Positions 9,831 to 32,095 of a stretch of DNA of 39,855 nucleotides are shown in pieces. The stretch lies in NCBI GenBank assembly GCA_937139515.1, contig CAKZQI010000298.1, positions 1 through 39,855 of the forward strand. Reading direction: 5' to 3'. The position numbers were made by a program, and so were the translations under genes. How positions within the stretch are numbered: position 1 is the first letter of the stretch; every line of letters starts with the position of its first letter. The DNA comes from an uncultured Armatimonadota bacterium (lineage in GTDB: Bacteria; Armatimonadota; Fimbriimonadia; Fimbriimonadales; GBS-DC). Below the pieces are notes generated by a model, which saw only the letters and a list, made by a program, of their open reading frames with translations, was not told the DNA's origin and searched no databases.

Positions 9831-9836
9831 TATAAT
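9831..9836 (+). promoter_or_regulatory. -10 box of anmK
   Basis: A consensus TATAAT preceded by GGGG and followed by a purine-rich start region (AGAAGATTG). It lies about 125 nt upstream of the anmK start, giving a long leader unlike most genes here. A small CCCC-AAACT-GGGG hairpin ends right at the box. Confidence 0.6.
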
Positions 9837-9844
9837 AGAAGATT

Positions 9845-9950
9845 GTAGGGTTGGCGATAAGCTCCTTTCCGGTCTTTACCTACCAACCCCACCACAGAGG
9901 GAGGCGCGAAAAACCCCGCCGCGCCTCCCTGCCAACCTGACCAAGGAGAG
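9845..9950 (+). ncRNA. Structured 5' leader of anmK (possible cis-regulatory RNA)
   Basis: Between the TATAAT box and the anmK ribosome-binding site the leader can form a 7-bp stem (GGGTTGG at 9848-9854 with CCAACCC at 9883-9889) and an 11-bp perfect stem (9898-9908 with 9920-9930, loop of 11 nt). A second CCAACC at 9932-9937 just before the ribosome-binding site can pair with the same GGTTGG, so two exclusive folds are possible. There is no T tract after the strong hairpin, so a simple terminator is unlikely. No known riboswitch class is recognised. The folding is seen in the sequence; a regulatory role is inference. Confidence 0.4.
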
Positions 9951-9962
9951 GATGGTACTCGT

Positions 9963-11174
9963 ATGACTGCCAACGCGCCCGAAAGGTTCCCCCAAAAAGG
10001 TTGGATTGCCGAGTGGCTTAGCGATTTAGCCCAGAAGCCCGAACGGTACGCCATCGGCTTGATGGCGGGCACCTCTATGGATGGGCTTGATGGCGCGCTG
10101 GTGCGCATCACGGGCAAGGGCAACGAGCGACGCGTGCAAACACTCGCCACCCACCCAATCCCCTACACCCCCGAAGAGCGGGAGGCTCTGAACCGCCTGC
10201 TCCACAGCCCCGACTTGGAGACGCTGGTCGCTTGGGACGCCTACTTGGGGGAGCGGTTCGCCGAATGCGCCCTTGCCCTGATGGCACATGCTGAGGTGGA
10301 CTTCATCGGCTCGCACGGTCAGACGGTCTGGCATGTGCCGAATGCGAGTGTGCTGGGGCGCACGGTACGCAACACGCTCCAGATTGCCCAGCCTGAGGTG
10401 ATTTTTGCGCGCACGGGGGTTCCTGTGGTGGGCGATTTCCGAACGCGCGATATGGCGCTCGGCGGACAGGGTGCGCCTCTTGTGCCGTTTGTGGACTGGC
10501 TCCTGCTGAGCCACCCCACCGAACCGCGCGCCGTGCTCAACATCGGGGGTATCGCCAACCTCACCGTCCTGCCTGCCCAGCCCGCGCCCGAACACATCTG
10601 GGCGTTTGACACAGGTCCGGGCAACACGCTGATAGACAGCGCGCTTCAAACGCTCACAGGCGGGAGGCTTCGGTACGACCCTGGCGGCTCCCTGGCGCAG
10701 AAGGGGCAACCCCACCTGCCGCTCTTAGAGCGCTTGCTGGCACACGACTATTTGCAGATTGCGCCCCCCAAATCCACTGGGCGCGAGCAGTTCCATCTGG
10801 GTCTGCTGGACGCCGTTGACCCCTCGTGGCGGACGCTAGGGCTGGAAGACCTGTGTGCCACACTTGCCGAATACACTGCCCGCACGATTGGGGAGGCGCT
10901 CCAGTGCTGGGTTCTGCCCAGCGTGCCCGTCCAGCGGGTGATTGTTTCGGGTGGGGGCATTCACAATCGGTTTCTATGGAGCCGTTTGCGAGACCTGCTC
11001 CCCGCGCCGATAGCGCTCAGCTCCAGCGCTGAGTTCGGCATAGACCCCGACTACAAGGAGGCGATTGCCTTTGCGGTGTTAGCCGATTGCTACTTGTTGG
11101 GCGAGGCGGTTTCGTTCCCCGGCACGACGGGCGTCTTGCGCCCGGCGCGGTTGGGCAAGCTCTGCGTGGGATGA
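9963..11174 (+). CDS. anmK: Anhydro-N-acetylmuramic acid kinase
   Basis: A kinase of 403 residues from the actin-like ATPase superfamily. It phosphorylates and hydrolyses anhydro-N-acetylmuramic acid to N-acetylmuramic acid 6-phosphate during recycling of cell-wall fragments. The N-terminal phosphate loop YAIGLMAGTSMDGLDGALV is diagnostic, followed by DFIGSHGQTVWH, VGDFRTRDMALGGQGAPLVP, LNIGGIANLTVLP, the FDTGPGNTLID loop, and a C-terminal VIVSGGGIHN. A 40-residue extension precedes the usual start of the kinase domain. The start ATG 9963 is preceded by AAGGAGAGG. The transcript carries the structured leader described separately. No murQ or other recycling genes are adjacent. Confidence 0.97.
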   Translation: MTANAPERFPQKGWIAEWLSDLAQKPERYAIGLMAGTSMDGLDGALVRITGKGNERRVQTLATHPIPYTPEEREALNRLLHSPDLETLVAWDAYLGERFAECALALMAHAEVDFIGSHGQTVWHVPNASVLGRTVRNTLQIAQPEVIFARTGVPVVGDFRTRDMALGGQGAPLVPFVDWLLLSHPTEPRAVLNIGGIANLTVLPAQPAPEHIWAFDTGPGNTLIDSALQTLTGGRLRYDPGGSLAQKGQPHLPLLERLLAHDYLQIAPPKSTGREQFHLGLLDAVDPSWRTLGLEDLCATLAEYTARTIGEALQCWVLPSVPVQRVIVSGGGIHNRFLWSRLRDLLPAPIALSSSAEFGIDPDYKEAIAFAVLADCYLLGEAVSFPGTTGVLRPARLGKLCVG

Positions 11175-17735: not shown

Positions 17736-18289
17736 CGCTGGACGAAGCGTGGAACCTGCTTTGTGAGTACACTCAGTCGGAGTCGCTTCGCAAGCACGCT
17801 CTGGCGGTTTCGGCGAGCATGCGCTACTACGCCCGCCTGTTCGGCGAAGATGAAGAACTCTGGGGCGTGGTGGGACTGCTCCACGACTTTGACTACGAGC
17901 GCTACCCCTCGCTGGAGGAGCATCCGTTTCGCGGGATGGAGATATTGCGCCAGCGGGGTGTGTCCGAAGTGATTGTGCGGGCAGTGGGCGCGCACGCCAA
18001 CCACACAAGCATCCCGCGCGAAAGCCTACTGGAGCACGCTATCTTCGCCTGCGACGAAATCAGTGGGTTCGTGATTGCGGTGGCGCTGGTTCGCCCCAAC
18101 CGTTCGCTGAGCGAGGTGGACGCCCAAGCCGTGCGCAAAAAGATGAAGGACAAGGCGTTCGCACGGGGCGTGAACCGAGACGACCTACTCAACGGCGCGG
18201 AGGAGCTCGGTATCCCTTTTGACCAGCATGTACAAAATATCATCGAGGCGCTCAAACCCATCGCCACTCAGTTGGGGCTGAACCCTTGA
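17732..18289 (+). CDS. HD domain (HDIG-type) phosphohydrolase
   Basis: A 185-residue protein. His22 (KHALAVSASM) and the metal pair His51-Asp52 in GLLHDFDYERYPSLEEHPFRG are of the HD superfamily, followed by VGAHANHT and FACDEISGF, which supply further metal ligands. This subtype is common in bacteria as a small stand-alone hydrolase; it often acts on nucleotides or nucleic acids, but the substrate is not known for this one. The ATG overlaps the aminotransferase stop, and a TTG start for the next MFS gene overlaps its own TGA, so all three genes are translationally linked. Confidence 0.9.
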   Translation: MTLDEAWNLLCEYTQSESLRKHALAVSASMRYYARLFGEDEELWGVVGLLHDFDYERYPSLEEHPFRGMEILRQRGVSEVIVRAVGAHANHTSIPRESLLEHAIFACDEISGFVIAVALVRPNRSLSEVDAQAVRKKMKDKAFARGVNRDDLLNGAEELGIPFDQHVQNIIEALKPIATQLGLNP

Positions 18290-31149: not shown

Positions 31150-31562
31150 CCCAGCACCCCCTGCAGGTGTTTCCAGAGGCTTAGCGCAAGGTTCAGAATC
31201 TGCTCAGAAAACACGGCGAATTCGGAATAGGGCCAATAATTCCCCAACTGGCTCAAATAGCCCTGAGCGAACCACCGGCTGACTAACCACGCCGAAGGCA
31301 CACACAACACCAGCCACAGCGCCGCCATCTCGCGCAGGGCGAGTGTGGGCGGGAGCGATACAGCGATTCGGCGCCCTCGTGGGGCGGGCAGGCGGGGCAG
31401 GTCGCGTAGGGCGTCGCTAATCCGAACCCAGCCCACCACCTTGCGCTGACAATCCGGGCACTCCCGCAGATGCGCCTCCACACGAGCGCGCTCAGACTCT
31501 GCGAGCCAGCCCTCTACAAAATCGTGTAGGTGCGGTTCCAACTCAGCGCATTCGGTTCTCAT
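31146..31562 (-). CDS. Zinc-finger anti-sigma factor (zf-HC2 type)
   Basis: A 138-residue protein with the ZAS signature His31-x3-Cys35-x2-Cys38 in HLRECPDC, one central-to-C-terminal membrane span (MAALWLVLCVPSAWLV) and an extracytoplasmic tail. Such proteins hold an ECF sigma factor at the membrane until a signal frees it. The start at the ATG of MRTECAELEP is chosen because it overlaps the sigma stop (ATGA); the longer frame to 31583 lies within the sigma gene. Confidence 0.92.
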   Translation of the reverse strand: MRTECAELEPHLHDFVEGWLAESERARVEAHLRECPDCQRKVVGWVRISDALRDLPRLPAPRGRRIAVSLPPTLALREMAALWLVLCVPSAWLVSRWFAQGYLSQLGNYWPYSEFAVFSEQILNLALSLWKHLQGVLG

Positions 31563-32095
31563 CCTAACTCTTCCTCCATCCACTGCCTGAGGCTCTCACG
31601 GGCGCGGTAGAGCCAAGTCTTCACTGTGCCCACCGGCACATCCAACGCCTGCGCCACCTGCTGGAGCGGGAGCTCCTCGTAATAGTGGAGCAACAGTGCC
31701 GTCCTTTGATTAGGAGGCAGGCGCAGGATGAGCCGTTGAAGCGTGCGTTGGCGCTCTCGTTCGTAGAGCTGCTCCTCCCAAGTCAGGCTTGGTGGCATCG
31801 CCTTCAAGGCGCGTTCCATCTTTTGCTGTTCGGTGTTTCGGTTGCGTCGGGCGTTCAGACATAGGCGCGCTGTGAGACACAAAAGCCAAGTCGCAAACGA
31901 CTGGCTGGGGTCATACAGCGCCAGCCGTGTGTAGGCGCGCAGGAACGACTCTTGCATCAAATCCTGCGCCCAGTCCGCCTCGCCCAGAATGCGGAACGCC
32001 AACGAGAACACGCGGTCGCGGTAGCGCTCCACCAACTGGTCAAAGGCGGTCGTATCGCCTTGTAAACACTGGTTCACAAGTTCGGCATCGCTCAT
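31559..32095 (-). CDS. RNA polymerase ECF-type sigma factor
   Basis: A 178-residue sigma-70 family protein with region 2 (DAELVNQCLQGDTTAFDQLVERYRDRVFSLAFRIL, QDLMQESFLRAY, FATWLLCLTARLCLNARR) and region 4 (RLPPNQRTALLLHYYEELPLQQVAQALDVPVGTVKTWLYRARESLRQ). It recruits core RNA polymerase to alternative promoters and is controlled by the anti-sigma protein encoded immediately downstream. It begins 1 bp after the stop of the secreted protein gene. Its target promoters are not identifiable with confidence; a GAAAC-like box upstream of the operon might be an autoregulatory one. Confidence 0.96.
   Translation of the reverse strand: MSDAELVNQCLQGDTTAFDQLVERYRDRVFSLAFRILGEADWAQDLMQESFLRAYTRLALYDPSQSFATWLLCLTARLCLNARRNRNTEQQKMERALKAMPPSLTWEEQLYERERQRTLQRLILRLPPNQRTALLLHYYEELPLQQVAQALDVPVGTVKTWLYRARESLRQWMEEELG

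What the first reader, a model, noticed from the sequence alone, without database searches (positions are those of the whole stretch)
9831..9962. anmK leader with two mutually exclusive pairings
Most genes here have almost no leader, yet anmK has about 120 nt with a consensus -10, an 11-bp perfect hairpin, and a GGGTTGG that can pair either with CCAACCC at 9883 or with CCAACC at 9932 beside the ribosome-binding site. That arrangement is typical of switch-like RNAs, and a wall-recycling kinase is a plausible regulated target.
Basis: partly seen in the sequence, partly recalled or inferred. Interest (0 to 1): 0.5.

Follow-up and report, generated by a model that had tools for sequence, protein, structure and literature searches.

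The report
Conserved stress-type small RNA beside anmK
The supposed regulatory leader of a cell-wall-recycling gene is really a conserved two-hairpin RNA locus, most likely a small RNA read from the opposite strand by a stress-type (ECF) promoter, in a little-studied bacterial family.

Summary
The listed motifs are real, and the block is conserved: one strong copy in 14 of 18 family genomes, a fifteenth (G005, E 0.034) accepted by eye, nothing convincing in 273 other phylum genomes. In nine genomes of one genus its 70-bp core is 93-98% identical beside stretches of 23-48%. Covariation supports the hairpins. But the second pairing exists in 1 of 15 copies (the window), and the element is not tied to anmK: other neighbours in G006 and G005, another gene between in G012. 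An anmK switch is not supported.

New: in 13 of 15 copies the minus strand carries an ECF-type promoter, GGGAACCT-N16/17-GTCWWA (window 9962-9991), pointing into the element. The strict motif has 34 sites in 17 of 18 genomes, its reversed control 0; 11 of 18 other sites examined precede prepilin genes. Hairpin P1 fits minus-strand RNA better; hairpin P2 leans to plus; a plus TATAAT is kept in 15 of 15.

Best reading: a convergently transcribed noncoding-RNA locus whose main product is an ECF-dependent small RNA of about 110 nt, here antisense to the anmK leader. Expression, 3' end and targets are unproven.

The parts
9962..9991 (-). ECF-type promoter GGGAACCT-N16-GTCATA (-35 at 9991-9984, -10 at 9967-9962), overlapping the first codons of anmK and pointing into the element
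   Evidence: strict motif 34 sites in 17 of 18 genomes, reversed control 0
9845..9955 (-). predicted small RNA: 5' end about 9955 (inferred, 6-8 nt after the -10), 3' end unknown, drawn to the base of P1
   Evidence: MFE -52.4, z -3.00; no U-tract terminator found
9898..9930 (.). hairpin P2 (11 bp on plus, 12 bp on minus), loop with conserved CCCCGC (plus) = GCGGGG (minus)
   Evidence: wobbles and z lean to plus
9845..9892 (-). hairpin P1; conserved arm CCAACCCCACCAC (plus) = GTGGTGGGGTTGG (minus); apical loop GGAAAGGAG (minus) = CTCCTTTCC (plus)
9831..9836 (+). plus-strand -10 box TATAAT, kept in all 15 copies; probable promoter of the anmK mRNA here
9932..9937 (+).
9963..11174 (+). anmK, anhydro-N-acetylmuramic acid kinase
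   Evidence: PF03702
8984..9808 (+). panB, ketopantoate hydroxymethyltransferase; upstream neighbour here (M32 carboxypeptidase in G012 by Pfam, and by its C-terminus, judged by eye, in nine other copies)

Best explanation
A single-copy noncoding-RNA locus of about 160 bp, found in one Armatimonadetes family, with two promoters facing each other. On the plus strand a sigma-A-like TATAAT starts transcription at the foot of P1; in the window this is the anmK mRNA. On the minus strand an ECF-type promoter starts a small RNA of about 110 nt that folds into P2, a G-rich linker and the long P1. When the ECF sigma factor is active, with a conserved prepilin gene in its apparent regulon, the small RNA would be made. 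I infer that it acts in trans as the noncoding arm of an ECF response, as RybB/MicA and FoxI/FoxJ do, and in the window also in cis by covering the anmK leader and ribosome-binding site and by promoter collision. Shown: conservation, structure, ECF motif and its strand, changing neighbours. Inferred: transcription, ends, trans action, effect on anmK.
For: Element in 15 of 18 family genomes: 14 with E<=8.4e-7, one strong copy each; G005 at E 0.034 accepted by eye. In nine g4 genomes the 70-bp core has identity 0.93-0.98 per ten bases, with 0.23-0.48 just before the TATAAT and just after P2. ECF-type promoter at 13 of 15 copies on the minus strand, 16-33 nt before the element. Strict motif: 34 sites in 17 of 18 genomes, 0 for the reversed pattern; 12 of 34 at the element. 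Of 18 non-element sites examined (4 had no locus), 9 stand 25-36 nt before the start of one conserved prepilin, and 2 before another (N_methyl/DUF1559 by Pfam in the window's genome). P1 is more stable as minus RNA in 15 of 15, by 0.5 kcal/mol or less in G009, G011 and G012 (sum -430 against -354); against shuffles its z is lower on minus in 13 of 15 (mean -3.54 against -2.32). Whole element more stable on minus in 13 of 15. Covariation on the minus alignment: 10 pairs changed on both sides against 3.2 in shuffles, 0 of 500. Indels between g4 copies break any shared frame. Neighbour genes differ. Hfq and CsrA genes in 16 of 18 genomes each.
Against: P2 leans to plus: energies -392 plus, -386 minus, minus better in 9 of 15, but its z against shuffles is lower on plus in 15 of 15, and its wobbles are G-U on plus in 9 cells against 1. 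Raw energies favour the G/U-rich minus strand partly by composition: in the window the shuffles themselves differ by 8.5 kcal/mol and z is -3.00 against -2.73. The plus TATAAT is kept in 15 of 15, the ECF box in 13 of 15, missing in G001 and G005. The looser ECF motif is weakly enriched in the own genome, 10 sites against 5. 'Further pair types' in the covariation test were not above shuffles (56 of 500), and that alignment was fitted to the structure. No transcript data; no target found.
Confidence: 0.5

Rival explanations
1. A sense/antisense RNA pair: both strands are functional and the two RNAs or promoters regulate each other, switching the locus between a housekeeping and an ECF state.
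For: Both promoters face each other in 13 of 15 copies; P1 looks shaped for the minus RNA and P2 for the plus RNA, by wobbles and by z against shuffles (P1 minus in 13 of 15, P2 plus in 15 of 15).
Against: P2 is a nearly perfect hairpin on both strands, so its z difference largely reflects the composition of the unpaired linker; its wobbles are six cells of one outer pair, two in G005 and one in G003; no expression data.
Confidence: 0.2
2. Plus-strand small RNA: the sigma-A TATAAT drives a C-rich two-hairpin RNA whose loops CUCCUUUCC and ACCCCGC act as anti-Shine-Dalgarno seeds in trans; the minus ECF promoter merely opposes or tunes it.
For: TATAAT in 15 of 15, with -35-like hexamers at 18 nt in G005, G012 and G006; in G005 no ORF follows in the plus direction for about 690 nt except a 65-aa one antisense to another ORF; P2 leans to plus.
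Against: P1 folds worse on plus in 15 of 15, with 10 A-C cells against 1 G-U in the plus-fitted alignment, one junk row left out, beside 7 cells that pair on neither strand. The CUCCUUUCC loop is missing in G012, G006, G001 and G005.
Confidence: 0.17
3. First reader's cis-regulatory leader (riboswitch-like attenuator) of anmK.
For: The element lies 29-164 nt before the AnmK match in 11 of 15 genomes; the plus fold beats shuffles.
Against: Alternative pairing in 1 of 15; neighbours change; P1 favours the other strand; no Rfam match.
Confidence: 0.08
4. CsrA-binding sponge RNA on the minus strand: GGA motifs in the P1 loop (GGAAAGGAG) titrate CsrA.
For: CsrA gene in 16 of 18 genomes; GGAAAGGAG in 10 of 15 copies exactly and as AGAAAGGAG in G017.
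Against: Loop lost in G012, G006, G001 and G005 while the rest of the core stays; other GGA motifs are buried in stems.
Confidence: 0.05

Closest known systems
FoxJ / FoxI of Fusobacterium nucleatum (PMC11005410, abstract read)
   Same: ECF (sigma-E) dependent small RNA in a phylum far from E. coli; FoxJ, ~156 nt, had been misannotated as the 5' UTR of ylmH, much as this one was read as the leader of anmK.
   Different: FoxJ is experimentally shown, with targets such as fomA; here no transcript or target is known, and the predicted RNA runs opposite to the neighbouring gene. No sequence comparison was made.
RybB and MicA, sigma-E dependent small RNAs of Salmonella (PMC1804206, abstract read)
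   Same: ECF-driven noncoding arm of an envelope response; an Hfq gene is present in 16 of 18 genomes here.
   Different: Their targets are omp mRNAs, tested in vivo; here targets are unknown and no terminator U-tract was seen. No sequence comparison was made.
ftsZ-DE RNA (Rfam RF02985)
   Same: Weak full-length hits to the window (11.8 bits) and to L023 (21.1 bits) over the element.
   Different: Gathering score 72.2 not reached; not listed for 8 other loci, though that larger search would have shown only hits of about 21 bits or more. Treated as chance.
CsrB/RsmZ-type CsrA sponges (recalled)
   Same: GGA in a loop; CsrA present.
   Different: The loop is not kept in 4 of 15 copies; only one such loop.

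Membership tests
ECF sigma-dependent small RNA | ECF-type promoter directly upstream of the RNA | tested here: met
   13 of 15 copies; motif specific against reversed control and found before prepilin genes
ECF sigma-dependent small RNA | conserved noncoding structured region on that strand | tested here: inconclusive
   conserved and structured; P1 fits minus, P2 leans to plus
ECF sigma-dependent small RNA | Rho-independent terminator or defined 3' end | tested here: not met
   U-tract terminator-like site on minus in 1 of 15, about 130 nt beyond the TATAAT; another kind of 3' end is possible, so it is filed as works-like and candidate, not as a proven member
ECF sigma-dependent small RNA | ECF-dependent expression and mRNA targets | not testable with these tools
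   no transcriptome; duplex test with co-regulated prepilin leaders gave nothing
Riboswitch / cis leader of anmK | linked to one gene or pathway | tested here: not met
   next to anmK in 11 of 15; otherwise in G006, G005, G012 and G015
Riboswitch / cis leader of anmK | conserved mutually exclusive structures | tested here: not met
   second pairing in 1 of 15 copies
Riboswitch / cis leader of anmK | match to a known class | tested here: not met
   none of 4227 Rfam families at gathering score in the window
ftsZ-DE RNA RF02985 | score above gathering threshold | tested here: not met
   11.8 and 21.1 against 72.2; not listed
CsrA sponge RNA | several GGA-bearing loops, conserved | tested here: not met
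   one loop, lost in 4 of 15 copies

The most novel reading that the evidence does not exclude
A compact two-way RNA locus in which a housekeeping promoter and an ECF stress promoter fire at each other across one two-hairpin sequence, giving two complementary RNAs with separate roles: P1 is shaped for the minus RNA and P2 for the plus RNA. The ECF response would turn a resident C-rich (anti-Shine-Dalgarno) RNA off by making its G-rich antisense partner.
Probability: 0.2. Interest if true: 0.68.

Novelty: new member of a known kind. Interest (0 to 1): 0.5.

Why it matters
Noncoding arms of ECF responses are known in Proteobacteria and shown in Fusobacterium. A conserved candidate in Armatimonadetes would extend the theme to another deep branch. 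It also gives a concrete ECF promoter motif and partial regulon (prepilin gene plus RNA) for a phylum with little known regulation, and shows how a plausible leader on one strand can hide an RNA gene on the other.

Tried and rejected
Known riboswitch or RNA family: Rfam at gathering score on the whole window, 0 hits; permissive scans gave ftsZ-DE at low score and low-scoring hits to other families, mostly miRNA models. A search for ftsZ-DE papers matched 187 papers; the 20 listed are about FtsZ or cell division, none about the RNA by title.

Coding leader peptide MT..RFP downstream of P2: rejected, because in G011, G006 and G004 the ATG is replaced (TAAGAC, TTAGAC, TTAGAC) while AGGTTCC stays; it is the reverse complement of the ECF promoter. 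Minus-strand ORF through the element: rejected because indels between g4 copies shift the frame (sequences).

Spread beyond the family: model R1 gave 16 of 291 phylum genomes at E<=0.01, 14 of them in the family; G037 and G272 were read and dropped because by eye they share only a GC hairpin. R2 gave 15 of 291, again 14 plus G037. Both phylum runs used stricter filters and did not report G005. G002 (E 0.12) was dropped on reading. G013 and G014 (81% and 65% complete) had no hit. Further weak matches (E 0.007 to 1), some of them the element's other strand, were not pursued, except L049, read and dropped.

Autoregulated ECF gene: a loose site upstream of an ECF gene on C122 lies inside another ORF; dropped. 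Targets: duplex energies between the element (both strands) and the leaders of the co-regulated prepilin gene in 8 genomes were not clearly better than shuffled leaders; the best of 16 comparisons had 25 of 200 shuffles as good. Alignments A1 and A2 misplace the distal P1 arm in some rows; A3 held junk matches, so A4 (15 rows) was used; A5 contains one junk row. The Frateuria AnmK locus L032 was not examined.

Because P2 leans to plus there in 15 of 15, I lowered the best explanation from 0.58 to 0.5 and raised the sense/antisense pair from 0.13 to 0.2, the novel case from 0.15 to 0.2 and the CsrA rival from 0.04 to 0.05.

Literature: searches (Armatimonadetes + small RNA + ECF sigma, 0 papers; 15 of 247 listed; 20 of 79 listed; anmK + riboswitch, 1 paper, on E. 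coli genome sequencing; 12 of 21,102 listed) showed no description of this element in what was listed; only titles, abstract starts and two abstracts were read.

Full report
The finding and what is in the sequence. All listed motifs are there, at or within a base of the stated places: TATAAT 9831-9836, GGGTTGG 9848-9854, CCAACCC 9883-9889, the 11-bp hairpin 9898-9908/9920-9930, CCAACC 9932-9937, and ATG 9963 of anmK (PF03702). The plus strand folds better than shuffles (z -2.98; z -2.73 for 9838-9955). The favoured fold pairs 9848-9854 with 9883-9889; the second partner is not used for it.

Conservation. A DNA search of 61 genomes gave its best non-self hits upstream of anmK in G011 and G004. 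Reading the regions before 18 AnmK matches showed the block in 11, the window included. A covariance model (R1) then found it in 14 of 18 family genomes at E<=8.4e-7. A fifteenth, G005 (E 0.034), I accepted by eye because it has TATAAT, CACCAACCCCAC and a hairpin with a CACCCCGC loop. G002 (E 0.12), G013 and G014 I count as without. Over the phylum, 14 of 291 genomes hit strongly, all in the family; the weak extra hits G037 and G272 were dropped on reading. G004's contig has the same length as LDYB01000018.1 of the MAG 'Armatimonadetes bacterium DC', found with the same gene, so the family belongs there. In nine of the eleven g4 genomes that have the element (the divergent G006 and G012 left out), mean identity per ten bases is 0.93-0.98 across the 70-bp core, 0.60-0.76 in the other P1 arm and loop, 0.92 at the TATAAT, 0.23-0.48 just before it and just after P2, 0.66 and 0.85 at the two ECF boxes, and 0.64-0.93 in the coding sequence before it. 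This is selection, not shared ancestry alone.

Context. AnmK is the next gene in 11 of 15 genomes, its match starting 29-164 nt behind the element. In G012 a DUF4058 gene lies between, with an M32 carboxypeptidase upstream; G015 shows a similar DUF4058-like start up to the contig end (by eye). In G006 the neighbours are an Omp85 protein and a thioesterase. In G005 it lies about 70 kb from anmK on the same contig, between two ORFs without a Pfam match, and in the plus direction no ORF of 60 aa or more follows for about 690 nt except a 65-aa one antisense to another ORF. So it is a unit of its own, not an anmK part.

The other strand. Behind P2 the g4 copies, G000 and G004 keep T(A/T)(A/T)GAC...AGGTTCC at fixed spacing even where the ATG is lost. 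Read on the minus strand this is GGGAACCT-N16/17-GTCATA, GTCTTA or GTCTAA, the textbook ECF promoter shape (consensus recalled, not from a call), pointing into the element. The strict pattern has 34 sites in 17 of the 18 family genomes and its reversed control none; 12 of the 34 are at the element, and G004 adds a thirteenth without the first G. G001 and G005 lack it. Of the 22 other sites I examined the 18 that had loci: 9 stand 25-36 nt before the start of one conserved prepilin (seven by the ORF listed; G007 and G012 by the same start seen in the printed sequence), and 2, in G003 and G017, before a second prepilin; the other 7 precede other ORFs. A looser pattern is only weakly enriched in the own genome, 10 against 5. 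In the window the site is 9962-9991, inside the first codons of anmK.

Which strand is the RNA? P1 is more stable as minus RNA in 15 of 15 genomes (sum -430 against -354 kcal/mol), though by 0.5 kcal/mol or less in G009, G011 and G012. Part of that is composition: the minus strand is rich in G and U, and in the window its shuffles also fold 8.5 kcal/mol better. Against shuffles of each strand, P1 still has the lower z on minus in 13 of 15 (mean -3.54 against -2.32; G008 and G012 the other way), but P2 has the lower z on plus in 15 of 15 (mean -5.73 against -3.03), while its raw energies are about equal, -386 minus and -392 plus. Changes in P1 are mostly A-C on plus, that is G-U on minus: 10 against 1 cells in the plus-fitted alignment, with 7 cells that pair on neither strand. 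In P2 it is the reverse, G-U on plus 9 against 1: six cells of one outer pair, two in G005, one in G003. Covariation on the minus alignment is strong: 10 pairs changed on both sides against 3.2 in shuffles, 0 of 500, and at most 5 in slid controls; further pair types were not above shuffles (56 of 500), and the alignment is fitted to the structure. In the window the minus RNA gives -52.4 kcal/mol, z -3.00. The plus TATAAT is kept in all 15, with a -35-like hexamer at 18 nt in G005, G012 and G006. I put the minus RNA first because of the ECF promoter and P1, but do not exclude a plus RNA or both.

Mechanism. Most likely an ECF-dependent small RNA, acting in trans on envelope or pilus functions, and here also antisense to the anmK leader. 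The family has Hfq and CsrA genes in 16 of 18 genomes each, and the own genome has 22 PF08281 matches, 16 over the cut-off, one in the window itself at 31562-32095. The sigma factor concerned is not identified. No target was found, and no terminator.

Known relatives. By kind it resembles FoxI/FoxJ (PMC11005410) and RybB/MicA (PMC1804206), of which I read the abstracts. No sequence relation was tested. The window matches no Rfam family at threshold. Paper searches listed no earlier description; others gave capped lists.

Noticed in passing
window 31562-32095 (-): An ECF sigma factor gene (Sigma70_r2 and Sigma70_r4_2) lies in the same window; whether it serves the element's promoter is unknown.
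   Followed up: partly
window 17751-17781 (+): A second loose ECF-like site, GGAACCT-N18-GTCGGA (the pattern is expected 0.04 times per window).
   Followed up: no
L065, L066, L068, L076, L077, L078, L087, L093, L094: A conserved prepilin gene (N_methyl/DUF1559 by Pfam in L065) starts 25-36 nt behind the same ECF-type motif in nine family genomes.
   Followed up: partly
L043 about 1435-1500 and L045 near the match (G012, G006): In G012 and G006 the plus TATAAT sits, by eye, in the loop of a 10-12 bp inverted repeat not noticed in the other copies.
   Followed up: no
L028 and other places: The block around GGGGTATAATA recurs in family genomes (16 weak matches in G001, most of them to this stretch), and looks like the family's usual -10 promoter form.
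   Followed up: no
L006 1210-1288: A short tandem repeat (GGCTTGCAGCAA type) on the 3' side of anmK in G001, seen through false miRNA hits.
   Followed up: no
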